The position numbers and the translations under genes were made by a program. From Magnetospira sp. (lineage in GTDB: Bacteria > Pseudomonadota > Alphaproteobacteria > Rhodospirillales > Magnetospiraceae), in the NCBI GenBank assembly GCA_028282245.1, contig JANQIL010000141.1, positions 1 to 34,070 on the forward strand: 34,070 nucleotides of DNA, read 5' to 3'. The notes below the pieces were generated by a model. It did no database searches, was not told where the DNA came from, and saw only the letters and a program-made list of their open reading frames with translations. This document shows positions 4,477 through 32,582 of the stretch, piece by piece. Numbering within the stretch: position 1 is the stretch's first letter; each line of letters starts with the position of its first letter.

Positions 4477-5418
4477 ATGACCGACCGGAAAACAGCCGGG
4501 AGCCGACTTGGTGCCGCCGCCCGGCGGCGCGTCGAGTCCGATGGCGCGGCCGGGCGCGTCGCCCGGATGGCCGATGAAATCCGGCACCTCCAAGGCACCA
4601 TCGCCCTTATGCGGGACGATATCGAACGGGCCGGCGCGGCGCACCGGCAGGCGGTGGACGAGGCAACCACGGCGCGCGACCAGGAACTGGACGGGCTGCG
4701 CCAGGTGGCTGCCGAAATGCGCGCGCACCTGGAGTCCGCGCACCTGGAAAAGGATGCTGCGGTCCGCGCCACCGCCGCCGAAATGGAAGCCGAGGCCGCG
4801 CGGCTGCGCGAAACCATCGCCGAACTGCGCGACCGTCTGGAGGCAACGGTTGAATCGCGGGATGCGCGGATCGCCATGGCCACCGAGGCGGCGCGCGCCG
4901 AGATCGGCCAGTTGCGCGACACCATTGATGCCCTGCGGGGGCGCGTCCAGAGCATGGCCAGCGAGACCGACAAGGCGTTGCGGGCGGCTCGCGAGGCGGC
5001 CGACAACGAGCAGGCGGTGCTCAAGCTGTCGGTGGCGGCGCTACGGGAGCAATTGGAGGAGGCGGCCGTCGAGGCCAACGTCGCGGTGGCCCAGGCGCGC
5101 TCCGAGTCGGACGCCGAGATCACGCGGCTGACCGAAACCATCGGCGTGCTGCGCGAGCAGATCGAGGCCCTGCAGGAGGAGAGGCGCGACGCGGTCGAGC
5201 AGATGACCGGCGTCGCGCGGTCCGAAACGAACCAGTTGCGGGAGACCGTCGCGACCTTGCGCGAGGCCCTGGAGGAGCAGGCCACGGAGGCCGAGCGGCG
5301 GCTCGACGCGCGCGACAGCCAGGCCCGCGACGAACAGCGCCATCTCAAGGAAACCGTCGCCGTCCTGCGCCAACGTCTCGACGCCGCCCAGGCGGTTTCC
5401 GGGGATCGGGAAGCATGA
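4477..5418 (+). CDS. Coiled-coil protein made of 36-residue tandem repeats
   Basis: I do not recognise this 313-residue protein as a named family. After a 37-residue basic N-terminus it consists of seven complete 36-residue units (starting at residues 38, 74, 110, 146, 182, 218 and 254) and a final 24-residue partial unit. No residues are inserted or lost between units. Each unit opens with a motif like LRETIAxLRxxLE and continues with an Ala/Glu/Arg-rich helical stretch. There is no proline or glycine break of note, no signal peptide and no membrane segment, so a long cytoplasmic rod or helical bundle is likely. The ATG at 4477 follows CGGGG and begins the GC-biased coding region. The stop overlaps the start of the following adenylyl cyclase (ATGA), implying translational coupling. 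A scaffold, oligomerisation partner or regulator of the cyclase is a reasonable inference but is not shown by the sequence. Confidence 0.85.
4588..5415 (+). repeat. 108-base coding repeats, about 7.7 copies
   Basis: The period is exactly 108 bases (36 codons). Units start at 4588, 4696, 4804, 4912, 5020, 5128 and 5236, with a partial unit at 5344. The repeats are clear at protein level (Leu at position 1, T-I/V at 4-5, L-R at 8-9, Leu/Ile/Val at 12) but diverged in DNA. That suggests old duplications held in register by selection rather than recent slippage. Confidence 0.85.
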
Positions 5419-7685
5419 ACGGGGTACGCGCGAAGTCGACCACGACCAGCAGCCTCGACCGGCGCAAGGCCAAATGCCTTGAAGACGTGCTGCACCGGGT
5501 CGCCGTCGTCGAGACCCTGGACGAGGTTCTGGAACAACTGGTCGAAGCGACCAGCCTGCAACTCGACACCGAGCGCAGCACGGTTTTCCTGAACGACGAA
5601 GACTCCGGCGAACTCTACGCGCGCATCGCCCAGGGCGCCCTGCGCCGCGAGATCCGACTCCTCAACACCACCGGCATTGCCGGTCACGTCTATGCCTCCG
5701 GGCGCCCGGTGATCGTCCACGACACCGCCCATGACGATCGCTTCAATCCGGCGATCGACGAGCAGACCGGGTTTCAGACCCGGTCCATCATGTGCGTGCC
5801 GATCCGCACCCTGAAGGGCCAGATCATCGGCGTCGCGCAGACCCTCAACAAGCGCAAGGGACGTTTCGGCAAGGCCGACCAGGACATTCTCGAAGCGATG
5901 ATGCAGCACGCCGCCATCGCCCTGCGCAACGCGCAGACCATCGAGCAGATCGAGAAATCGCGCCAGCAGGAGCGCGAATTCATGGACGTCGTCGCCGAAT
6001 TGACCTCGGAGATCGACCTGAACGTTCTGCTTCAGAAGGTGATGTCGGAAGCCACCAGCATGCTGAACGCCGAGCGCTCCACGCTGTTCCTGAATGAAAA
6101 GAAGACCAACGAGCTGTTTTCCCGCATCGCCCAGGGCGACGGGGTGGGCGAGATCCGGTTTCCCAACCACCTGGGCATCGCCGGCACGGTGTTCGTCTCG
6201 CGCGCCACCGTCAACATCCCGCACGCCTATGCCGATCTGCGCTTCAACCCCGCGTTCGACAAGAAGACCGGATTCTTCACCCGCTCCATCCTCTGCGTGC
6301 CGGTGGTCAACAAGCGTGGCGAGACGATCGGCGTCACCCAGGTGCTCAACAAGCGCGGCGGCCCGTTCACGGACGAGGACGAGCAGCGGCTGAAGGCCTT
6401 CACCGCGCAGGTCTCGATCGCGCTCGAGAACGCCAAGCTGTTCGACGACGTTCAGAACATGAAGAACTATAACGAGAGCATGCTGCAATCGATGTCGAAC
6501 GGCGTGCTGACCCTGGACGAGAACGGTGTCGTCGTCACCTGCAACGCGGCCGGCCTGAGGATCCTCAAGCACCGGTCCGAGGAGATCGTCGGCCACAAGA
6601 TCCGGGATGTTTTCGGCGGCGGCAACCAATGGGTCGTCGAGCGGGTCGAAAAGGTCCGCGACAACAACGAGGCCGACATCCTGATGGACGCCGAGATGGA
6701 ATGGCGCGATCAGAAGGTGTCGATCAACCTGACCGTCCTGCCGCTGCACGGCGTGGACGGCAAGCCGCTCGGAATCATGATCATGTTCGAGGACATCTCC
6801 AACGAGAAGCGGGTCAAGTCGACCATGGCCCGTTACATGGATCCGGGCCTGGCCGACAAGCTGCTTGAGAGCGGCCAGGACCTGCTGGGTGGCCAGAACT
6901 CCAAGGCCTCCATGCTCTTCACCGACATCAAGAGCTTCACCTCCCTGGCCGAGGAACTGGGTGCCCAGGCCACGGTGTCGCTTCTCAACGAGTACTTCAC
7001 CATCATGGTCGAGTGCATCTCCCGCGAGGGCGGCATGCTGGACAAGTTCATCGGCGACGCGATCATGGCCGAATTCGGCATCCCGCTGCCGCACGACGAC
7101 GACGAGGACCGCGCCCTACGCGCCGCCATCGCCATGCAGACCGAGTTGCAGGCCTGGAACCGCGATCGGGTCGGCCAGGGACGCCCGGAGGTCGGCATGC
7201 GGGTCGGAATCAACACCGACGTGGTGGTGTCCGGCAACATCGGCAGCCCCAAAAGAATGGACTACACGGTGATCGGCGACGGCGTGAATCTGGCATCGCG
7301 CCTGGAGGCCGCCTGCAAGCAATACGGCGCCTACATCCTGATTTCCGATCACACCCGCAGGGGTCTGCGCGGCACCTACCGGATGCGCGAGGTGGACCTT
7401 CTGGTGGTCAAGGGGAAGACGCAGCCGGTCCCGGTGTTCGAGGTCCTGGACCATTATCGGGACGTGGAATTTCCCAACATGATGGAGGTGCTCGGGCACT
7501 TCAACGAGGGTGTCGCCGGCTACCGGCGCGGCGACTGGCGGCGCGCCGTCGGAAGCTTCGGGGAGGCCCTGCGGGCGCACCCGAACGATTTCTGCTCAAG
7601 GATGTACGTCGATCGCTGCGAGCGCCTGATGGCCGAACCGCCGCCCGGCGACTGGAACGGCGTCTGGGTGATGACCACCAAATAG
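5415..7685 (+). CDS. Class III adenylyl cyclase with two GAF domains and a PAS domain
   Basis: This predicted cytoplasmic enzyme makes cAMP from ATP. Order in 756 residues: GAF1 (about 20-175), GAF2 (about 190-340), PAS-like domain (about 350-465), cyclase domain (about 495-680) and a short helical tail. The catalytic set looks complete. Metal-binding Asp504 lies in LFTDIKSFT and Asp548 in [11 protein letters not shown]. Lys544 and Thr618 are the adenine-specifying pair, and Asn625 and Arg629 are the transition-state residues. A Thr at the second specificity site marks the class IIIb group, which includes bicarbonate-responsive enzymes such as cyanobacterial CyaB1. GAF2 keeps the full NKFDE signature of cyclic-nucleotide-binding GAFs (N312, K313, F318, D322, E323). 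GAF1 has the same pattern with Gln for the last Glu. Product feedback or cGMP control through GAF2 is an inference. The start overlaps the upstream repeat-protein stop. Confidence 0.93.
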
Positions 7686-8776: not shown

Positions 8777-9514
8777 TCAACTCAGGCTTTGCAACGCCGG
8801 AAACGCGCGCAAAAGCCAGCCGGAGACCGCCGTCAGGCCGCCGGTCATGATCAGAATGCCGGTGGCGACCAGCAGCAGCCCGAGGCCGATTTCGATCTTG
8901 CGCATGTGGCGCCGGAATCTGGCCAGGAAGGCCATGAAGCGGCTGGCGAAGGCGGCGGCGATCAGGAACGGGATGCCGAGGCCGGCGGTATAGACGCAGA
9001 GCAGCCAGACGCCATCCCGGATATTCTCGCCCTGTGACGCCTGAAACAGGATCATCGACAGGATCGGTCCCACGCAGGGGCTCCAGCCGAACGCGAAGGC
9101 GGCTCCGAACAGGAATGCCCCGAGCAGGCCGGCCGGCTTGCTGTCGATGTGCATCCGCTTCTCGTAATTGAGGAACGGGATGCGGATCGCCCCCATGAAA
9201 TGCAGCCCGAAGATGACGATCAGGCCCCCGCCGGCAATGGCAAGAGTGGATCTGTTCTGGGCCATGACTTGGCCCAGCGCCGTCGCCGAGGCGCCAAGCG
9301 GCACGAACACCGCGCCCAGGCCGATCACGAAGGCGAGGCCGGCCAACAGGGCGCCGCGGGTCACCCCGGCCGGTTTCTCGTCGGCCGTCAACTCGGCCAG
9401 CGAGTTGCCGGAGATGAACGACAGGTAGGCCGGCACCAGCGGCAGAATGCAGGGCGCCAGAAAGGTGCCGACGCCGGCGACCAGGGCAGCCAGGTACGAA
9501 ACGTGCAATTCCAT
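8777..9514 (-). CDS. CcdA/SoxV-like thiol-disulfide electron transporter
   Basis: This inner-membrane protein of the DsbD/CcdA family carries reducing equivalents from cytoplasmic thioredoxin to periplasmic thiol proteins. It has 245 residues and six hydrophobic segments. The redox cysteine pair is Cys22 in FLAPCILPLVPAY and Cys147 in GWSPCVGP, both with the typical flanking prolines. It is the last gene of the sox operon, 19 bases after soxB. That position and family match SoxV, which in Paracoccus supplies electrons needed for Sox function. The SoxS-like thioredoxin at 15638-16009 is a plausible recipient. From sequence alone a general role in cytochrome c maturation (CcdA) cannot be excluded, so no symbol is assigned. 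Confidence 0.9.
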   Translation of the reverse strand: MELHVSYLAALVAGVGTFLAPCILPLVPAYLSFISGNSLAELTADEKPAGVTRGALLAGLAFVIGLGAVFVPLGASATALGQVMAQNRSTLAIAGGGLIVIFGLHFMGAIRIPFLNYEKRMHIDSKPAGLLGAFLFGAAFAFGWSPCVGPILSMILFQASQGENIRDGVWLLCVYTAGLGIPFLIAAAFASRFMAFLARFRRHMRKIEIGLGLLLVATGILIMTGGLTAVSGWLLRAFPALQSLS

Positions 9515-9533
9515 GGCGCGCGGTCTCCCCGTG

Positions 9534-11222
9534 TCAGGCGCCGACGATCTCGATGGCCCGATTCTCGGGCAGATCGATCACCCCCTTGCGTTGAATGTGG
9601 TTGGACACCACGTCCCAGATCGGCGGACCATCGGTGCCCTCGTTGACCGAGGCCCAGCCGCCCACCGTGTAGGTCCTGGACGGGTCGATGGGGTCGCCGG
9701 TCGCCAGCAGGGTCATGTTGGAGATGCGCCGGCCCATCGTCTGGCCGATGTCGATGCGGTAGCCGAGGCCGCCGACCCGCACCATGTCGCCGCCCTGCTG
9801 ATAATACGGATCGGGATTGAACAGGTTGTCGGCCACATCCTCCAGGATGGTCTTGAGCATCTCGCCGGTCATCTGGCTGCGGTAACATTCGGGATAGGTG
9901 ATGCCCGTCTGGTGGTACACGTGCTCGACCAGGATGTCCTCGCCCGGCGGCAGGGAGGAGCCCCAGCGGAATCCGGGAGACAGGGCGATCTGGCAGTCCC
10001 GTTCCTCGATCACCGCCTGGCAGATCAGATCGTCGAAGGTTCCGTTGAAGTTGCCGCGTCGGTAAAGCAGCGAGTCCGTTCGGCCCAGCACGCGATTGAT
10101 CTCGCTGGAATAGGGGGCCCGGATGTCGTCGATCAGCCGGGCCATTTCGGGGTCCGGAGCGATGACGTCGGAGAACACCGGAATCAGCTTGAACCGGTGA
10201 TCGGCGACCCGCTTGTTCTCCACCCGCAGATCCAGGCGGGCCAGGAATTTGCCGTGCGAGCCGGAGGCCACCAGCAGGGTGTCGCCGACCCGGATCACGC
10301 CGGGCATGGCGTCATGGGTATGGCCGGTCAGCAGAACGTCGATGCCCCGGACCCGGGAGGCCAGCTTGCGATCCACGTCGAACCCGTCATGACTGGCCAG
10401 AACCACCAGATCGGCCCCCTCGTCGCGCGCCTTGTCCACGTGTTCCTGGACCAGGGCGTCGCGGATGCCGAACGACCATCGCGGGATCATGTGGCGCGGA
10501 TTGGCGACCGGGGTGTAGGGGAATGCCTGACCGATGACCGCCACCTTGACGCCGCCGCGCTCGAAATAGGCATGGCTGTCGAACACCGGCTCCTCGAAAT
10601 CGGTGTCGACCACGTTGCCGCACAGGAACGGGAAATCGAGCATGCCGATCAGCTCGCGCACCCGGTCCTCGCCGTGGGTGAATTCCCAGTGCGCGGTCAT
10701 GGCGTCCACTCCCAGCGCGTTCATGGCCCGCACCATGTCGGCGCCGCGCGTCTTGAGCGCCGTGTAGGAGCCCTGCCAGGTGTCGCCATTGTCGATCAAG
10801 AGGGTGTTGTTCGGGCGTTCGGCGCGGATCGCCTTGACGAGGGTGGCCATGTGGGCGAGACCGCCGACCCGGCCGTGGTCGCGCGACAGATCGGCGAAAT
10901 CCAGGCTGGTGAAGGCATGGGCCTCGGGGGTTCCGGCGATCAACCCGAAATGATCGAGAAATGCCTTGCCGGTCAGGTGCGGCGGCAGCCCGCGTGCCTC
11001 GCCGACCCCGATGTTGACCGACGGCTCGCGGAACCACAGGGGCACCAGCTGGGCGTGGATATCGGTGAAATTGAGCAGGGTGACCTGACCCAGGGGGGCG
11101 AAACTCAGCAGCGCGTCCTGCGTCAGGTGGCCGCGCGACGCGGCCCGGGAGACGCCGCCCAGCGGCCCCGCGAGGGCGGCGGTGGCGGCGGCGACCTGAA
11201 GGAAATCGCGGCGAGTGAGCAT
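9534..11222 (-). CDS. soxB: SoxB, dimanganese sulfate thiohydrolase
   Basis: SoxB hydrolyses sulfate from the S-thiosulfonate attached to SoxY in the periplasm. The chosen start gives 562 residues, the usual length, and a Tat-type signal with RRDFLQ at residues 4-9 followed by an Ala-rich core; longer upstream starts would bury this signal. Metallophosphoesterase motifs are present: DIH at 54-56, NGDTWQGS around 145-152 (Asp147), HWEF at 178-181 in the position of the nucleotidase NHE motif, and GHTHD further on. The C-terminal 5'-nucleotidase-like domain is intact. It lies between soxA (109-base gap) and the ccdA-like gene. Identification as SoxB rather than a generic 5'-nucleotidase rests on FTDIHAQL, HWEFTHGEDR and the surrounding sox genes. 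Confidence 0.96.
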   Translation of the reverse strand: MLTRRDFLQVAAATAALAGPLGGVSRAASRGHLTQDALLSFAPLGQVTLLNFTDIHAQLVPLWFREPSVNIGVGEARGLPPHLTGKAFLDHFGLIAGTPEAHAFTSLDFADLSRDHGRVGGLAHMATLVKAIRAERPNNTLLIDNGDTWQGSYTALKTRGADMVRAMNALGVDAMTAHWEFTHGEDRVRELIGMLDFPFLCGNVVDTDFEEPVFDSHAYFERGGVKVAVIGQAFPYTPVANPRHMIPRWSFGIRDALVQEHVDKARDEGADLVVLASHDGFDVDRKLASRVRGIDVLLTGHTHDAMPGVIRVGDTLLVASGSHGKFLARLDLRVENKRVADHRFKLIPVFSDVIAPDPEMARLIDDIRAPYSSEINRVLGRTDSLLYRRGNFNGTFDDLICQAVIEERDCQIALSPGFRWGSSLPPGEDILVEHVYHQTGITYPECYRSQMTGEMLKTILEDVADNLFNPDPYYQQGGDMVRVGGLGYRIDIGQTMGRRISNMTLLATGDPIDPSRTYTVGGWASVNEGTDGPPIWDVVSNHIQRKGVIDLPENRAIEIVGA

Positions 11223-11331
11223 GGCGGCCTCACGTATCGGTGCGTGTGGTTCGCGGACCTGCGCGGGACGAAGGGCGACGCGCGCCAAGCACGAGGCGTC
11301 GGCGCCCTTGAGGAACTGTTGGCCTCGCCGC

Positions 11332-12168
11332 TCAGCGGCGCACCGACGGCGCCTCCGACGGCAGGCCGTTCGACCGCCACATCACGAACAGTTCGAGGTT
11401 CGTGTATTCCTCCGATCCGCGCTTGAAGGGCTCGGCCCGGATGTTCTTGTTGCATCCCGTGAACCGGCGGTGCAGGGACCCCAGTTTCTGCCACTTCAGG
11501 CGGTAGGTGGGAAAGCCGTTGCCCATGCCGTGGCTCAGCAGGTCGGCCCGGATCATGTTGCCGGCATTGTCCAGGTGGCACATGTTGCAGGACAGGTCCA
11601 GTTGGCCGCGCCGCTGGAAATAGAACTCGCGACCCTTCTCGAAGAACGGCCGGGCCGGGCCATCGATCGCCACGTCGATCGGCATGCCGCGCGATTGCAG
11701 CTTCACGTGGGCGGTCATGCCGAGCATCTGATCGGACTCCCATTTCCAGGCGTCGGCGCCCATCCGCTCGGTGCGGCATTCGTTGATGACGTGTTCCAGG
11801 GCCGCCATATTGGCGGTCTTGTCCCGGTACTTGGGATATCCGAGCGAAACCCCCTTCAGGGTCTCCACGGCGCCGTGGCAGTCGGCGCAGGACTTGCCCG
11901 CGGTGCCCTCGGCCGCGCCCCACAGGTCCTCGGCCAGACCGACCCAGGTGAAGGCGGGGTTCTTGAAATCGTCCTCCTGCATGTCGCGGGTGGCGACGGT
12001 TGCGTAGACGTAGCCCGAGTGCTTGTCCCCCACGATGTGGTCCTTGATTCGTGGGTCGTTCATGATATCGCCGTAGACGGCGCTGCCCTCCTGGGCGGCG
12101 CCGGTGGTCGCGGCAAGCAGCAGGACCGCCGCGACCACGCCCGGGACACCCGTCCAGTACCGCCTCAT
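11332..12168 (-). CDS. soxA: SoxA, dihaem cytochrome c of the SoxAX complex
   Basis: With SoxX this periplasmic protein oxidatively couples thiosulfate to the SoxY cysteine. The 278-residue precursor has a Sec-type signal (about 1-25). Two haem-binding motifs are visible, CADCH at 94-98 and CNMCH at 194-198, so this is the dihaem type. Cys239 in RRFTGCNK, followed by RAEPF, fits the active-site cysteine that ligates haem and is modified to persulfide in characterised SoxA. Cys131 is an additional cysteine outside the haem motifs. The gene lies between soxZ and soxB in a colinear minus-strand operon. The ATG at 12168 follows a purine-rich stretch containing GGGAGG, supporting the start. Confidence 0.96.
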   Translation of the reverse strand: MRRYWTGVPGVVAAVLLLAATTGAAQEGSAVYGDIMNDPRIKDHIVGDKHSGYVYATVATRDMQEDDFKNPAFTWVGLAEDLWGAAEGTAGKSCADCHGAVETLKGVSLGYPKYRDKTANMAALEHVINECRTERMGADAWKWESDQMLGMTAHVKLQSRGMPIDVAIDGPARPFFEKGREFYFQRRGQLDLSCNMCHLDNAGNMIRADLLSHGMGNGFPTYRLKWQKLGSLHRRFTGCNKNIRAEPFKRGSEEYTNLELFVMWRSNGLPSEAPSVRR

Positions 12169-12223
12169 GGCGTGAGTCCTCCCTGTCTTATTCTATTTTG
12201 TTCGCGCCACGGGCAACGGTCCG

Positions 12224-12550
12224 TCAGCCGACCTGGATCGATTTGGTTTCCGACACGGACTCGCCCGTGTCGTCGGTCCAGGTGAAGGTGTATTCGCCGC
12301 TCTCCGTGGCACGCTGAAAGAAGGCGATGTAGGGGTTGGCCGAAACCGCCGGTTCCAGTTTCATCGTGAACACGGTCTTGCCGTTGAAGTCGCAGGTGAA
12401 GGTGTTGACGATGTCGCGCGGGATCGGCTGTCCGTCCTTGTCCTTGCGCAAGCCGGTCTCCATCTTGTGCGTGACCAGGGTCTTGATCTGAAAGACTTCG
12501 CCCTTGGCGGCCGATTTCGGCACTTTCACGCGCGGCCTGGATGCTGCCAT
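12224..12550 (-). CDS. soxZ: SoxZ, partner of the SoxY carrier
   Basis: SoxZ forms the SoxYZ heterodimer that carries sulfur intermediates in the periplasm. The 108-residue protein has no signal peptide, as expected because it is exported with SoxY. It shows the typical opening PRVKVPKSAAKGEVFQIKTL, then HKMETGLRKD, PRDIVNTFTCDFNG, and a final beta-rich region ending ETKSIQVG. Length and fold pattern match the family. A single cysteine (FTCDFNG) is present. It sits 48 bases after soxY and 55 before soxA. Confidence 0.95.
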   Translation of the reverse strand: MAASRPRVKVPKSAAKGEVFQIKTLVTHKMETGLRKDKDGQPIPRDIVNTFTCDFNGKTVFTMKLEPAVSANPYIAFFQRATESGEYTFTWTDDTGESVSETKSIQVG

Positions 12551-12598
12551 TGCTCGAAACTCCTCGTTGGTGTCCGTGTTGTCGTCGGGCGTCGGCGG

Positions 12599-13084
12599 TC
12601 AGCCGCCGCAGCCGCCGACGGTGACCTTGACTTCCTTCTTGCCGGAAATCACCGATCCGTCGCTCAGTTCGGCGATCGCCACCACGTTCTGGGTCCGTGC
12701 CATGCGAATCCGGGTCGAGGCCTCGGCCTTGCCGCAGGCGGGGGTCAACTCGAAGGTGCATAGGCCCGGGTTCGGGTTGCCTTCGGCCACGACGTGAATC
12801 TTGGTCACGTGATCGGCGTCGGTCATTGGGCTATCGACGGTGACCGTCACCGGCACCGTGTTGCCGTTCTCGGCGATCGGCGGCAGGTCGATGGCCACTC
12901 GCGGGTCGTCGACCGGGTTTCTGCCGCCGGTCAGTTCGCTCGCCCATTTGGCCGCGTCTTCCGGGGCCGCGTCGGCGTTGCGCGCGGTCATGCCGGCGCC
13001 CGCCGCGACCAGGGCTCCACCGCCGAGCGCGCCCAGGAGGCCGCGCCGGTTGAGCGTCAGCGAAGTACTGCGTTGCTGGGTCAT
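12599..13084 (-). CDS. soxY: SoxY, sulfur carrier with C-terminal GGCGG arm
   Basis: The 161-residue precursor has a Tat signal (NRRGLLGALGGG, arginines at 13-14) and ends in GGCGG. Cys159 there is the swinging-arm residue on which thiosulfate is loaded and cleaved. The middle contains NPNPGLCTFELTPACGKAE and TRIRMARTQNVVAIAELSDG, characteristic of SoxY. The two cysteines in LCTF and PACG are an oddity: in SoxY sequences I remember these positions are usually other residues, so a structural disulfide is possible here. It is preceded by soxX (65-base gap) and followed by soxZ. The ATG at 13084 puts the Tat motif at the correct distance from the N-terminus. Confidence 0.96.
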   Translation of the reverse strand: MTQQRSTSLTLNRRGLLGALGGGALVAAGAGMTARNADAAPEDAAKWASELTGGRNPVDDPRVAIDLPPIAENGNTVPVTVTVDSPMTDADHVTKIHVVAEGNPNPGLCTFELTPACGKAEASTRIRMARTQNVVAIAELSDGSVISGKKEVKVTVGGCGG

Positions 13085-16363: not shown

Positions 16364-16729
16364 ATGAGCGGAGAACTCCTCGAACGGCGGGTGGTTGACG
16401 ACGGAAGCAAGGTGTTCAGGGAAGGCGACCTCGGCGATCACGCCTATATCGTGCAGGATGGCGGCGTCGACATCGTCAAGATCCATGGCGCCGAGGAGGT
16501 GTGCGTCGGCCATGTCGGCAGGGGCGGGGTGTTTGGTGAAATGGCGCTGATCGGCGACCAGCCGCGCATGGCCACCGCCCGGGCGGTCGGCACCACCACC
16601 CTGATCGTCGTCTCGCGCCGCAAGTTCGCCGAGAAAATGGCGGCCGCGGATCCGTTCATGCGCGCTCTTCTGGGTATTTTCGTTCGCAATATCGGTAACT
16701 TCAGGGAGCATGGAGCCTCGCGCGAGTGA
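16364..16729 (+). CDS. Stand-alone cyclic-nucleotide-binding domain protein
   Basis: The 121 residues are almost entirely one CRP-type cyclic-nucleotide-binding domain, with no DNA-binding helix-turn-helix and no membrane segment. The phosphate-binding cassette is intact. FGEMALIGDQPRMATA at 57-72 has Glu59 for the ribose hydroxyl and Arg68 for the phosphate, while KVFREGDLGDHAYIVQDGGV forms the preceding beta roll. It should therefore bind cAMP or cGMP and act by protein contact. No partner is encoded beside it. The GAF/PAS cyclase at 5415-7685 is a candidate source of ligand. The ATG at 16364 places the first strand correctly; the ribosome-binding site is weak. Confidence 0.9.
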   Translation: MSGELLERRVVDDGSKVFREGDLGDHAYIVQDGGVDIVKIHGAEEVCVGHVGRGGVFGEMALIGDQPRMATARAVGTTTLIVVSRRKFAEKMAAADPFMRALLGIFVRNIGNFREHGASRE

Positions 16730-28412: not shown

Positions 28413-29336
28413 ATGGTTATGGAATTACGTTTGGCGGAGCGGCATCGGGTCGCGTTTGAAGAGGGAAAGTCGACGGTGGAGCCATCCGACGGCGCGGCCA
28501 TGTTTCGAATGCTGAGCGGCTTTCATGAGCGCCCGGCGCCATTCTCCCGCCACACCACCGGGGATCTGTGGACGGACCCCCATGTCTCGAAACAAATGCT
28601 GGCCTTTCACCTGAATTCCGACAGCGATCTCGCGTCCCGGCGACCGGCCCTGATCGAGGGAACCGTCGACTGGCTCGATCGGCGCCTGAATCTGTCCGGC
28701 AAGGCCGTGTGCGATCTCGGGTGCGGTCCGGGGCTCTATGCGACACGCATGGCCGCGAGGGGCGCGGCGGTGACCGGGGTCGACTTCTCGTCCGGGTCTC
28801 TCGATCACGCAGCCGAACATGCGCGGCGGGCCGGGTTGTCGATCGACTGGATTCTCGGTGACTACCTGGATTGCCCGCTGCCTTCGGACCAGGACCTGAT
28901 CTGCCTGATCTACAACGATGTGTGCGCCCTCTCGCCGGACCGCAGAAGAACGCTGTTCGATCGAATTCGCGCGGCCCTTGCCCCTGGCGGGCATTTCGTC
29001 TGCGACAGCCACGCGACGGCGCAGTATGCGGCGCGGGTGGAGGAAACCGTCTACGGCCGGCGCCTGATGGACGGTTTCTGGGCCGACGGAGACTATTTCG
29101 GATTCCTGGCCACGTTCCGTTACGACGCCCTGCAACTCGCTCTCGACAGGTATCTGATCGTCGAGCCCCGGCGCGTGCGCGAAATATTCAATTGGCTCCA
29201 GTATTTCGATCCGGCGGCGCTGTGCCAGGAAATCGCCGCCGGTGGGTTCGAGACGGTCGCGGTCGTCGATGCCCTGACCGGCGACCCCTGGGTCGAGCCG
29301 GCCCGGGAGTTCGCGGTCGTCGCCCGGGCCGTCTGA
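28413..29336 (+). CDS. Class I SAM-dependent methyltransferase
   Basis: This 307-residue protein has a Rossmann-type methyltransferase core. Motif I is VCDLGCGPGLYATRMA at about 99-114, followed by VTGVDFSSGSLDHA (the acidic end of strand 2), LGDYLDCPLP and LIYNDVCALSPDRRRTLFDRIRAALAPGGHF. The substrate cannot be told; small-molecule methyltransferases of this type are common. The opening DLWTDPHVSKQMLAFHLNSDSDLASR is typical of one unnamed subgroup. Start choice is uncertain: ATG at 28413 or 28419 gives the longest form, and ATG 28500 would remove 29 poorly conserved-looking residues. It converges on the CNB-ZIP gene with a 56-base gap. Confidence 0.88.
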   Translation: MVMELRLAERHRVAFEEGKSTVEPSDGAAMFRMLSGFHERPAPFSRHTTGDLWTDPHVSKQMLAFHLNSDSDLASRRPALIEGTVDWLDRRLNLSGKAVCDLGCGPGLYATRMAARGAAVTGVDFSSGSLDHAAEHARRAGLSIDWILGDYLDCPLPSDQDLICLIYNDVCALSPDRRRTLFDRIRAALAPGGHFVCDSHATAQYAARVEETVYGRRLMDGFWADGDYFGFLATFRYDALQLALDRYLIVEPRRVREIFNWLQYFDPAALCQEIAAGGFETVAVVDALTGDPWVEPAREFAVVARAV

Positions 29337-29392
29337 CGCGGATTCCGGATGATCGATGCGGGTTTCGTGTGCGAGCGCGCCCTCGGCCCGGC

Positions 29393-31219
29393 CTACAGGG
29401 TCGAGGACCATATCGCGGTCAGGAATCCGAGCAGGGTGGAGAAGCCGACCAGCGCGCCCCCCTTGAGGTAGGCTTCCGGCAGCATGGTCTCGGCGATCAT
29501 GGTCAGCATCGCCCCGGCCGCCATGCCCTGCACCAGGGCAAAGACATGCGGCGGCGCCCCGGCCAGGAACAGCGCGCCGAGCGCCGCGCCGAGGCCGGTG
29601 ATCAGCATCAGCGAGCCCCACATCAGGAGCACCCGGCGGAACGCCATCCCCTGGTGCCGCATGCCGACCGACGACGACAGGGCCTCCGGGTAATTGGACA
29701 GGAACAGCCCGGCGATCAGCGACAGGCTGAGCTGGGAATGGGATTGCCCGGCCCCGATCACCAGCGATTCGGGGATTCCGTCGAGCAGAATGCCGAGCCA
29801 GATGGCCAGCGGCGCGCCGCCGTGCCGGCCGACCTCGCCAGCCAGTTCGGAGGCCGCCGGGATCAGCCGCCCCTCGGCCAGGTTGCGGGTCGCGTGGCGA
29901 ATCCAGCGGGCCGCCTTGTGGGGGTCGAAGTGCTGGCGGGTTTCGAGGTAGTCGGCCACTTCGCCCCGGCGCAGGAAGTCGCGCACCTGATCATCGAGGT
30001 GCGGGAAGCGCAGCAGCAGGTCCTCGAAGTCGTCCCGCTCCAGCGACCACAGCGCGGACCCGGCGGTCGCCACGGCGCTGACCGAATGACGCGCCCCGGT
30101 CAGGAACGACATTCCGCCCAGCGCCTCGTGGTCGTGCACCGCCACCTGCGGCCGGTCGCGGTTCAGCGGATCGATCAGGGTCACCTCGCCGTGCTCGACG
30201 ATGTAGAAACGGTCGGCCGGGTCGTGGCGGTGAAAAAGCGTGTCGCCGGGGTTGAGACGGATCGGCAACAGCCGCTCGGCGATGGCTTCGAGTTCCTCGC
30301 GGAGCAGCCGTTGAAAGATCGGAAAGCGGCCGATGTGCCCGGCCATGCGCGGGAACTCGGCCGCCCCGCGCGGGGAGTCCTGCGCCGGGGGTACCGGACC
30401 GCCGCGATCCAGGGACACGGCGGCTCGGTCGCGCCAGTCGGCGACCGCGTCGGCGTCGATTCCAATGGCGCCGGTCAGGAAGGCGGTCACCGATTCGCCC
30501 ATCAGATAGTCGCGGACCGCCCGCGCGAAGGTTGGCGAGGTCACCACCCGGTGATCCACGGCGCGCTTGGGAATGCGCCAGATCCGGGACTCGGCGGTGG
30601 TGATCGCGGAGGCCGACCGCCGGGTGCCTGTGAACAGGGACGCATGCCCGAAGGCCGCCGACGGGCCGATGGCGCGGACTACCGCGCCGCCCCGTTCGCC
30701 GTCGATCAGCCGCACCTCGCCGGATTCCACGAAATAGAACGAGTCCGCCGGCTCGCCCTTGAAGAACAGGGTGACACCCTCCGGCACCTGGCGCATGCGG
30801 GCGGCGCAGGCCAGATCCTCCAGATCGTCCGTGGGCAGATCATCCAGGGCGTCGAGGTGCTCCATGTGGCCGAGCAGCCGGGTCAGCCGATGCCGCCGCC
30901 GTCGCCGAAGGTAACCGATCATGGTTGACGACTTGCGCAGGAAACCGCCCTGGTTGTTGATGGTCTGGTTGAGGAACACGAACAGCAGGCCGCCCAGGAC
31001 GCAGCCCAGGGTGAGCGAATGGACGTGGCCCTCGCCGAGCGCCGAGGCGACCAGATCGATGGTCAGCGCGGCGAGCAGGGCGCCGCCGCCGAACGCCATG
31101 AGCACCGCCAGCACCCGGTCGCCCGGCGTCCAGATCAGGGTGGTCAGGGTGCCCAATGGCAGCGAGCAGGCGCTCACCAGCCCCCAGAACAGGGCCAGCA
31201 GAATGACCGACGTATCCAT
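29393..31219 (-). CDS. ZIP-type metal transporter homologue with two inserted cyclic-nucleotide-binding domains
   Basis: The 608-residue protein has three N-terminal membrane segments (within 1-90), a long soluble insert (about 100-455) and about five C-terminal membrane segments. The insert contains two CRP-like domains: CNB1 (about 125-245) and CNB2 (about 295-420). In the phosphate-binding cassettes CNB1 has GHASLFTGTRRSAS (Glu replaced by His, Arg kept). CNB2 has GGMSFLTGARHSVS (Glu absent, phosphate Arg apparently His), so CNB2 looks degenerate. The ZIP metal site is also altered. TM4 reads LLDGIPESLVIGA and TM5 LFLSNYPEALSS, retaining Pro-Glu but lacking both usual histidines (Asp480 and Ser508 occupy their approximate places). 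I recall ZIP-like proteins with this DGIPES/SNxPE variant. Metal and direction are unknown. The upstream gene in the same orientation, 73 bases away, is a cyclase-like protein. Confidence 0.88.
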   Translation of the reverse strand: MDTSVILLALFWGLVSACSLPLGTLTTLIWTPGDRVLAVLMAFGGGALLAALTIDLVASALGEGHVHSLTLGCVLGGLLFVFLNQTINNQGGFLRKSSTMIGYLRRRRRHRLTRLLGHMEHLDALDDLPTDDLEDLACAARMRQVPEGVTLFFKGEPADSFYFVESGEVRLIDGERGGAVVRAIGPSAAFGHASLFTGTRRSASAITTAESRIWRIPKRAVDHRVVTSPTFARAVRDYLMGESVTAFLTGAIGIDADAVADWRDRAAVSLDRGGPVPPAQDSPRGAAEFPRMAGHIGRFPIFQRLLREELEAIAERLLPIRLNPGDTLFHRHDPADRFYIVEHGEVTLIDPLNRDRPQVAVHDHEALGGMSFLTGARHSVSAVATAGSALWSLERDDFEDLLLRFPHLDDQVRDFLRRGEVADYLETRQHFDPHKAARWIRHATRNLAEGRLIPAASELAGEVGRHGGAPLAIWLGILLDGIPESLVIGAGQSHSQLSLSLIAGLFLSNYPEALSSSVGMRHQGMAFRRVLLMWGSLMLITGLGAALGALFLAGAPPHVFALVQGMAAGAMLTMIAETMLPEAYLKGGALVGFSTLLGFLTAIWSSTL

Positions 31220-31292
31220 GACGCGTCCCCGACGTTAAGCGACGGCGGTCATTGTGCGGGCCGTCCGCGTGGCCCGGCAAGCGACGTTTGGA

Positions 31293-32582
31293 TCAAACCT
31301 CGTCGCTTCGGGCCGGGCGTCCGACGGGCAGTCCGTCGGGCGAGTAGTAGAGGATTTCCTCGTCGTGGAGGTTGCCGAACTCGCCCAGGTCCTGGTGCTG
31401 CAACCCAAGGAAAATGGGCGGCGCGTTGCGTCGGTAGATGTTGACCTTGGCGTTGAAGACCTGATGCGTCTGGCCGTGCTTGTCGCGGATGCGGTAGCGG
31501 GCGATGCCGTAGCTGCCGTCCGCGTAGCGCGGCCCGGTCAGGTAACATCGGATCGACACCACCTCCTCGCCGGACAGGGTCACCCCCTGCAGGTTGGAGA
31601 TCGTCTCGCCGGCCTGGCGGATGAACTCGATCGCGTCCATGCGCAGGGTGCGGTCGCCTTCGCTGTCGAACATGGGGGTCTGGAAATTGCCGATCAGCAC
31701 CTGGCCGGGCAGGGCGTTGCCGATCATTCGCGCCAGCACGATGGTCACGTCGCCGACGATGAAACTCACCGTGGTCGGGTTCAGGCCCTCCGACTGGAAA
31801 AACTCGTAATGCGAGCCCACGTGGAGGCAGGTCCGGAGAAAGGGAACCGTGCGGCCGTTCGACTTGGCGCGCGCGATGGCGTTGTCGGCCATCACCAGGT
31901 GCATGAAGTGATACAGGTCGAGATTGGCGCGGATGGTCGAGACCCGGTTCCAGATGTAGTAGCCGTCGCCGGTGGTGGAGCGAGCGAACTTGATGTCGAT
32001 GTGCTTCTCCAGCAGCTTGGCGTAGGCGGCGTTGACGGAATAGGACAGGCTGTTGAGTTGGGTGACCTGCTCGAAGGGCGATACCAGGGAGAACCCGACG
32101 GCGTCGAACAGGGCCACCGCGCGATCGTTGACAAGCGTGATGCCGTAGCGGCCCACCAGGGCCTCGATGACATCGGCCCCGAGGTCGATTCCGGGCCGGA
32201 ACGGCAGGTTCAGCCGCACCGGCTCGGCCTCGAACAACCGCGCCACCGCGTGCAACCGGTCGGCGCCGAGCTGCTTTCGACCGGCCAGGATGCGTTCGAT
32301 CGCGCTGGCCGCGCCGTCGCCCAGGGCCTCGGCGATCGGGTCCTCGCGCCCGGCCACCACCTCGGCGATCCGGTAGTGCGGCACGACGATCAGGTCGATC
32401 GCCGAGTCGGCGAGGCTCCAGGCGATCACGATATCGCGCCCCAAGTTCCACTTGATGAACAGCTCCTCGTCGAGAATTCGACTGGACTCCCGAATGAGTC
32501 GTGCCGTCCGTTCCTCGGCCGGAACGGATGCCCAGAACCTGTCGAGCCAGGTTCGGCGGGTCAAGTTGGCGCGCGCGTTCAC
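31293..32582 (-). CDS. Degenerate class III nucleotidyl cyclase-like protein
   Basis: The 429-residue protein has an unrecognised N-terminal region (1-145), a region with class III cyclase features (about 150-300) and an unrecognised C-terminal region (310-429). The cyclase match rests on spaced motifs. AVALFDAVGFS (Asp160) resembles the first metal motif, and STTGDGYYIWNR (Asp206) resembles the KFIGDAIMA motif. LHVGSHYEFF and IVGDVTIVLARMI (Asp278, Arg285), then LPGQVLIGN, match the later strand-helix pairs. Both metal aspartates and the Arg are kept. The adenine-specifying Lys is Ser/Thr (around 202-204) and the transition-state Asn is Ile281. It may bind nucleotides without cyclising them, or use a different chemistry. 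No signal peptide or membrane segment is present. It precedes the CNB-ZIP gene by 73 bases, probably in one operon. The family call is by eye. Confidence 0.6.
   Translation of the reverse strand: MNARANLTRRTWLDRFWASVPAEERTARLIRESSRILDEELFIKWNLGRDIVIAWSLADSAIDLIVVPHYRIAEVVAGREDPIAEALGDGAASAIERILAGRKQLGADRLHAVARLFEAEPVRLNLPFRPGIDLGADVIEALVGRYGITLVNDRAVALFDAVGFSLVSPFEQVTQLNSLSYSVNAAYAKLLEKHIDIKFARSTTGDGYYIWNRVSTIRANLDLYHFMHLVMADNAIARAKSNGRTVPFLRTCLHVGSHYEFFQSEGLNPTTVSFIVGDVTIVLARMIGNALPGQVLIGNFQTPMFDSEGDRTLRMDAIEFIRQAGETISNLQGVTLSGEEVVSIRCYLTGPRYADGSYGIARYRIRDKHGQTHQVFNAKVNIYRRNAPPIFLGLQHQDLGEFGNLHDEEILYYSPDGLPVGRPARSDEV

What the first reader, a model, noticed from the sequence alone, without database searches (positions are those of the whole stretch)
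29393..31219. ZIP-family transporter interrupted by two cyclic-nucleotide-binding domains
Two CRP-type domains are placed in the loop between TM3 and TM4, the normal position of the ZIP regulatory loop. ZIP proteins are not generally known to be gated by cyclic nucleotides. One of the two sites (CNB1) retains the phosphate Arg, while CNB2 has lost the key residues. The usual TM4/TM5 histidines are replaced by Asp and Ser with Pro-Glu retained. This could be a ligand-controlled metal permease or a transporter-like sensor.
Basis: partly seen in the sequence, partly recalled or inferred. Interest (0 to 1): 0.75.

Follow-up and report, generated by a model that had tools for sequence, protein, structure and literature searches.

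The report
Metal transporter carrying cyclic-nucleotide sensor domains
A bacterial ZIP-type metal transporter carries one or two cyclic-nucleotide-sensor-like domains in the cytoplasmic loop that links its fixed and moving halves, and the same design recurs in unrelated bacteria, so a nucleotide or a similar small molecule may control the metal uptake.

Summary
Window 29393-31219 (-) is an intact 608-aa frame: ZIP TM1-3, two CRP-type domains (Pfam cNMP_binding, 8e-35), ZIP TM4-8. It is not an assembly fusion. Two-CNB orthologues (47-51% identity) occur in three genomes of other families, and one-CNB homologues (~460 aa) in seven more. On the ZIP part all 11 form one clade (100/100) apart from 14 insert-free relatives. 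The insert is 186 aa with one CNB and 368-369 aa with two; homologous tails behind the two CNBs indicate a tandem duplication of CNB plus tail.

Two corrections. (1) All seven one-CNB members keep the cNMP phosphate-cassette Glu and Arg. In the two-CNB form the Glu is lost at all 8 sites; CNB1 keeps the Arg in 2 of 4. (2) The Asp/Ser metal site belongs to the whole insert-free LDGIPES-type ZIP subfamily.

Best reading: a divergent ZIP permease gated by a cytosolic CNB module in the L(3,4) loop, which joins the scaffold to the moving transport domain. cNMP control is plausible for the one-CNB clade and doubtful for this protein. No paper found describes the combination. Binding and transport are untested.

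The parts
29393..31219 (-). whole gene, 608 aa, ZIP transporter with a two-CNB insert (CNB-ZIP)
   Evidence: open frame; Pfam; full-length orthologues
30959..31219 (-). residues 1-87: ZIP TM1-TM3; conserved acid D55 in TM2 (position of BbZIP S106, own reading of the alignment)
   Evidence: alignments, hydropathy, BbZIP alignment through insert-free relatives
30860..30958 (-). residues 88-120: NxxGGFLRK[STA]S signature and basic linker after TM3, cytoplasmic by the positive-inside rule
   Evidence: conserved in all 11 CNB-ZIPs; 56% identity among the two-CNB forms
30500..30859 (-). residues 121-240: CNB1 (Pfam core 143-221)
   Evidence: Pfam; 30% mean identity among the two-CNB orthologues
30596..30649 (-). 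phosphate-binding cassette of CNB1, GHASLFTGTRRSASAITT: Glu to H192, Arg R201 kept
30350..30499 (-). residues 241-290: tail 1 with invariant W262
   Evidence: homologous to tail 2
29990..30349 (-). residues 291-410: CNB2
   Evidence: Pfam; 47% mean identity, 33 invariant positions of 120
30065..30118 (-). phosphate-binding cassette of CNB2, GGMSFLTGARHSVSAVAT: Glu to G369, Arg to H378, motif conserved in all four orthologues
29822..29989 (-). residues 411-466: tail 2 with invariant W439, leading into TM4
29396..29821 (-). residues 467-608: ZIP TM4-TM8, with D480, E484 (TM4), E512 (TM5), E577 and E582 (TM7)
   Evidence: 67% mean identity among the two-CNB orthologues; carboxylates invariant; BbZIP alignment

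Best explanation
This is a divergent ZIP-family metal permease of the LDGIPES-type subfamily. Its cytoplasmic TM3-TM4 loop has been replaced by a folded regulatory module made of two CRP-type (CNB) domains. Shown: the architecture, its single origin in this ZIP subfamily, its recurrence in diverse genomes, the probable tandem duplication of a CNB+tail unit, the intact cNMP cassette in the one-CNB sister clade, and the altered cassettes here. Inferred: eight helices with the loop in the cytosol, and metal transport by the usual ZIP elevator with a carboxylate-only site (D480, E484, E512). In published BbZIP structures TM3 belongs to the scaffold and TM4 to the moving transport domain, and the L(3,4) loop already acts as an inhibitory zinc sensor. 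A CNB module there could gate transport allosterically, locking or freeing the elevator on ligand binding. In the one-CNB clade the ligand is probably a cyclic nucleotide. In this two-CNB protein CNB2, with its conserved RH cassette, is the more likely functional site, for a non-canonical ligand or an apo/protein interaction, and CNB1 is a diverging partner domain.
For: Pfam and BbZIP matches. Intact orthologues in several families and orders. One clade for all CNB-bearing ZIPs at 100/100. Insert lengths 186 vs 368-369. Tail 1 vs tail 2 homology at 19-64 bits, above every one of about 2000 shuffles. One-CNB cassette LGEIA..TG..RTA with Glu and Arg in 7/7. Metal-site carboxylates D480, E484, E512 invariant and an acid at 55, TM4-8 67% identical. 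The genome encodes six class III nucleotidyl cyclase matches and 14 CNB domains, so cNMP signalling is available. Literature on L(3,4) autoregulation and elevator domains: PMC10256678, PMC9278863; precedent of a cAMP-modulated solute carrier: SLC9C1, PMC6052114.
Against: The cassette Glu is absent from all eight CNBs of the two-CNB form and the Arg from six, so classical cAMP/cGMP binding by this protein is doubtful. No conserved gene neighbour supports a signalling or metal role. The Zip score is below Pfam's cut-off for every CNB-ZIP tested, and some give no Zip hit at all. No usable structure model could be made (pLDDT 41), so the inter-domain geometry is unknown. The gene is absent from the same-genus and same-family genomes searched (G098, G099), so it is dispensable.
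Confidence: 0.6

Rival explanations
1. A true cyclic-nucleotide-gated metal permease: cAMP or cGMP binds CNB1 through R201 (and possibly CNB2), and directly opens or closes transport in this protein.
For: Pfam cNMP_binding at high score; R201 kept here and in G463; Glu and Arg intact in all seven one-CNB homologues; cyclases present in the genome.
Against: The ribose-binding Glu is replaced in CNB1 (H192) and CNB2 (G369); the phosphate Arg is His in CNB2 of all four orthologues and in CNB1 of two; CNB1 is the less conserved domain.
Confidence: 0.25
2. The CNB pair is only structural: a scaffold or dimerisation module inherited from a once cNMP-binding ancestor, with no ligand, over a working metal transporter.
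For: Degenerate cassettes in the two-CNB clade; CNB-like domains without demonstrated ligand are known in other proteins (own knowledge); ZIPs are reported as dimers (PMC10256678).
Against: CNB2 keeps an invariant pocket motif SF[LI]TG[AS]RH[ST]VSAV across orthologues only about 50% identical, which a plain spacer would not need.
Confidence: 0.25
3. A transceptor or sensor: the ZIP part has lost transport and reports external metal to the cytosolic CNBs.
For: The usual ZIP metal histidines are replaced and the M2-type ligands are absent (G481, N509, T541 by alignment).
Against: The same substitutions occur in insert-free family members; the remaining carboxylates are invariant and TM4-8 is the best conserved part.
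Confidence: 0.12
4. Assembly artefact or chance fusion of a ZIP gene and a Crp-like gene.
For: The genome is a 168-contig draft.
Against: Same architecture, same junction signatures and same insert length in independent genomes.
Confidence: 0.01

Closest known systems
ZIP (SLC39) transporters, GufA/ZupT-like, BbZIP of Bordetella bronchiseptica
   Same: TM1-8 alignable through insert-free relatives; Pro-Glu motifs in TM4 and TM5; the regulatory element lies in the TM3-TM4 loop L(3,4), shown in BbZIP to be a cytosolic zinc sensor (PMC10256678).
   Different: L(3,4) is a 370-aa double CNB module with no obvious HxH pair; by alignment H177 is D480, N178 is G481, Q207 is S508, D208 is N509; Pfam Zip score below the cut-off.
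Insert-free LDGIPES-type ZIP subfamily (e.g. Deinococcus taeanensis WP_225523609, Rhizobium WP_203431459, Haladaptatus WP_227357152)
   Same: 44-53% identity over TM4-8; same Asp/Asn substitutions and acid in TM2.
   Different: About 250 aa, TM3-TM4 loop short and basic, no CNB.
SLC9C1 sperm Na+/H+ exchanger (solute carrier with CNBD)
   Same: A secondary transporter joined to a cytosolic CNB domain; cAMP modulates transport (PMC6052114).
   Different: Different transporter family; one CNBD after a voltage sensor, not an insertion between scaffold and transport halves; eukaryotic.
CNB domains of PKA regulatory subunits, Crp/Fnr regulators, acetyltransferase Pat, family 2B encapsulins
   Same: Best sequence matches of the two inserts.
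   Different: None of these is a transporter; the cassette here lacks the Glu and, in CNB2, the Arg.

Membership tests
ZIP (SLC39) family | Eight-helix ZIP fold, sequence match over TM1-8 | tested here: met
   Profile of insert-free relatives matches BbZIP over TM1-8 at E 1.8e-11; P0001 Zip E 9.3e-6 but below the Pfam cut-off; no structure model of its own
ZIP (SLC39) family | TM4/TM5 metal-site motif with His and Pro-Glu | tested here: inconclusive
   Pro-Glu kept in both helices; His replaced by D480, and S508 in TM5, by alignment; shared with insert-free relatives
ZIP (SLC39) family | Transport of Zn2+ or another divalent metal | not testable with these tools
   no assay
Cyclic nucleotide-binding (CNB) domain superfamily | beta-roll domain, Pfam PF00027 | tested here: met
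   two stretches, E 8.1e-35
Functional cNMP-binding CNB | Phosphate-binding cassette with ribose Glu and phosphate Arg | tested here: not met
   CNB1 H192/R201, CNB2 G369/H378; met in all seven one-CNB homologues
Cyclic-nucleotide-gated transporter (functional analogy with SLC9C1) | cNMP changes transport activity | not testable with these tools
   no assay

The most novel reading that the evidence does not exclude
CNB-ZIPs are nucleotide-gated elevator metal transporters: a CNB module wedged between the scaffold helix TM3 and the transport-domain helix TM4 couples a second messenger (a cNMP in the one-CNB clade, another ligand read by the RH-type CNB2 in the two-CNB clade) directly to divalent-metal uptake.
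Probability: 0.35. Interest if true: 0.78.

Novelty: new variant of a known kind. Interest (0 to 1): 0.6.

Why it matters
ZIP transporters are major zinc and iron importers from bacteria to humans, and how their TM3-TM4 loop controls the elevator is an open question. Here a well-understood kind of ligand-binding switch sits exactly in that loop, with zero-, one- and two-domain versions available for comparison. If ligand binding gates transport, it would link second-messenger signalling directly to metal uptake, which I did not find described, and would give a tool for trapping ZIP conformations.

Tried and rejected
Assembly fusion: rejected by orthologues. Functional operon with the upstream gene P0002 (31293-32582, -): by eye it carries class III cyclase-like motifs (FDxVGFS, TTGDG, IVGDVT.xLAR), but Pfam, NCBIfam and PDB searches find nothing and hhalign against two cyclases of the same genome gave probability 0.2% (shallow template, so weak evidence either way). 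P0002 is widespread without CNB-ZIP (32 of 317 genomes), and in the same-genus genome G098 it follows rpsF directly, with the methyltransferase and CNB-ZIP missing between them, so the pairing is not conserved. Structure prediction from single sequences failed for both proteins (pLDDT 41 and 36); relatives from the genome search are not among the sequences that tool admits, so no alignment-based model was tried and no fold search was run. A tree of the CNB domains alone is unresolved. The scan of viral contigs and the phage collection gave nothing; plasmids gave only insert-free ZIPs. A degenerate DNA pattern for the GGFLRK linker was too unspecific. An idea that H330 and H378 form a metal site was dropped, because a His at the H330 position is, from memory, also present in ordinary CNBs such as CRP.

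Full report
What is there. Window 29393-31219 on the minus strand is an intact 608-codon frame starting with ATG. Pfam finds the cyclic nucleotide-binding domain twice (8.1e-35) and Zip in two stretches at a score under its curated cut-off. The best ZIP stretch covers residues 472-583. The N-terminal part (residues 1-87, hydropathy) aligns with TM1-3 of insert-free ZIP relatives. P0001 itself gave no BbZIP match among the PDB hits shown, since CNB proteins filled the list, but a profile of the TM4-8 halves of CNB-ZIPs reaches BbZIP structures weakly (E 0.003), and a profile of the insert-free relatives reaches them over TM1-8 at E 1.8e-11.

It is not an accident of assembly. A search of 317 genomes of the same order gave full-length two-CNB orthologues in G160 (49% identity) and G014 (48%), and shorter homologues of about 460 aa with one CNB in G294, G295, G029, G305, G306 and G309. 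A class-wide sample of 385 genomes added G463 (two CNBs) and G508 (one CNB), both in high-quality genomes. A phylum-wide sample of 398 gave no further CNB-ZIP but five insert-free relatives. Insert-free relatives also sit on plasmids of Deinococcus, Rhizobium, Haladaptatus, Pantoea and others. The distribution of CNB-ZIPs is rare and patchy; no other genome in the orders of G463 and G508 has one.

History. On the ZIP part alone, with the insert removed, the 11 CNB-bearing proteins are one side of a branch with 100/100 support against 14 insert-free ones, and the one-CNB group is likewise 100/100. The long branch to the outgroup L013 makes the root unsure. All share the junction signature NxxGGFLRK[STA]S after TM3. 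Inserts between that signature and TM4 are 186 aa in all one-CNB proteins and 368-369 aa in all two-CNB proteins. The segments behind CNB1 and CNB2, each with an invariant Trp (W262, W439), are homologous: a profile of one scores the other at 19-64 bits, while the best of about 2000 shuffles is 11.8. The simplest reading is one insertion of a CNB unit and a later tandem duplication of CNB plus tail. The similarity of these tails to the one-CNB tail is suggestive only, and the CNB tree is unresolved, so a separate recruitment is not excluded.

The nucleotide pocket. The cassette reads LGEIA[LM]VTGxxRTATA in all seven one-CNB proteins, with Glu and Arg at the spacing of PKA-type sites (own knowledge of the motif; sequences). 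In the two-CNB proteins CNB1 reads FGHASLFTGTRRSASA (this window), FGHMGCITGAPRATYA (G463), FGRMAFLAGAPHALCA (G160) and MGVRAFLAGTPHAGSA (G014), and CNB2 reads [FL]G[GA]xSF[LI]TG[AS]RH[ST]VSAV in all four. Among the four orthologues mean identity is 58% in TM1-3, 56% in the linker, 30% in CNB1, 24% in tail 1, 47% in CNB2, 37% in tail 2 and 67% in TM4-8. The domain under stronger constraint is therefore CNB2, with an altered and fixed pocket motif. That argues against a dead domain there and against classical cNMP recognition.

The metal site. By alignment to BbZIP (my reading of the columns) H177, N178, E181, Q207, D208, E211 and E276 correspond to D480, G481, E484, S508, N509, E512 and E577; the acid D55 in TM2 lies at the position of S106. 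D480, E484, E512, E577 and E582 are invariant in the two-CNB proteins, and position 55 is Asp or Glu. In the one-CNB clade the residue at 577 is Ala. The Asp-for-His change and the PE motifs are shared with most insert-free relatives, so they define the subfamily, not the CNB form. Transport is likely retained; the metal is unknown.

Mechanism. Structural papers on BbZIP describe an elevator: TM1, 4, 5 and 6 move against a scaffold of TM2, 3, 7 and 8 (PMC9278863; another paper groups TM2 with the moving part, PMC10256678). The L(3,4) loop of BbZIP folds back as an inhibitory intracellular zinc sensor through two His residues. The CNB module occupies exactly this connection. That it gates the elevator is an inference from position and homology. 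A precedent for a solute carrier under cAMP control is SLC9C1 (PMC6052114). The genome encodes six Guanylate_cyc matches and 14 CNB domains, so cNMPs may well be made.

Surroundings. Neighbours are not conserved between CNB-ZIP loci. In the same-genus genome G098 the rplI...rpsF block is followed directly by P0002, whereas in the window a methyltransferase (28413-29336, +) and the CNB-ZIP lie between them. G098 has no CNB-ZIP match anywhere, though it is only 81% complete. The pair was therefore gained here or lost there; the patchy distribution favours gain. GC content does not mark it as foreign. No promoter- or terminator-like site was found in 29300-31420.

Literature. Full-text searches for ZIP with cyclic-nucleotide-binding domains found no description of the combination. 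The library lacks most subscription papers, so this is not proof of novelty; the architecture may well be listed in domain databases.

Verdict. The architecture is real, conserved and of single origin on present evidence. Regulation of metal transport by the CNB module is the best explanation (0.6). cNMP control of this particular protein is doubtful (0.25) but plausible for the one-CNB clade.

Noticed in passing
window 31293-32582 (-): 429-aa protein P0002 with class III cyclase-like motifs (FDxVGFS, TTGDG, IVGDVT.xLAR) that no Pfam, NCBIfam or PDB profile recognises; found in 32 of 317 genomes of the order. A possible divergent or unrecognised cyclase-like family; profile comparison was negative.
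   Followed up: partly
window 28413-31219 against G098 (L071): A two-gene segment (methyltransferase and CNB-ZIP, about 2.7 kb) is present here and absent between rpsF and P0002 in the same-genus genome G098.
   Followed up: partly
L080, L082, L083: Insert-free ZIP relatives lie next to msrA and/or msrB methionine sulfoxide reductase genes on Sphingomonas, Pseudomonas and Acinetobacter plasmids, hinting at an oxidative-stress role of the subfamily.
   Followed up: no
window 5415-7685 (+): 756-aa protein with a class III nucleotidyl cyclase domain at 6900-7424, in the same window as the CNB-ZIP.
   Followed up: no
window 16388-16642 (+): A further cNMP_binding domain (71.7 bits) in a 134-aa frame, apparently a small stand-alone CNB protein.
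   Followed up: no
L003 (G000:C157:4896-5720): 737-aa protein with two CNB domains followed by what looks like a patatin-like phospholipase (GGGGARG, GTSMG motifs), a second double-CNB fusion in the same genome.
   Followed up: no
window 8777-13084 (-): A row of genes that look like a sulfur-oxidation cluster (CcdA-like, SoxB-, SoxA-, SoxZ- and SoxY-like, judged by eye).
   Followed up: no
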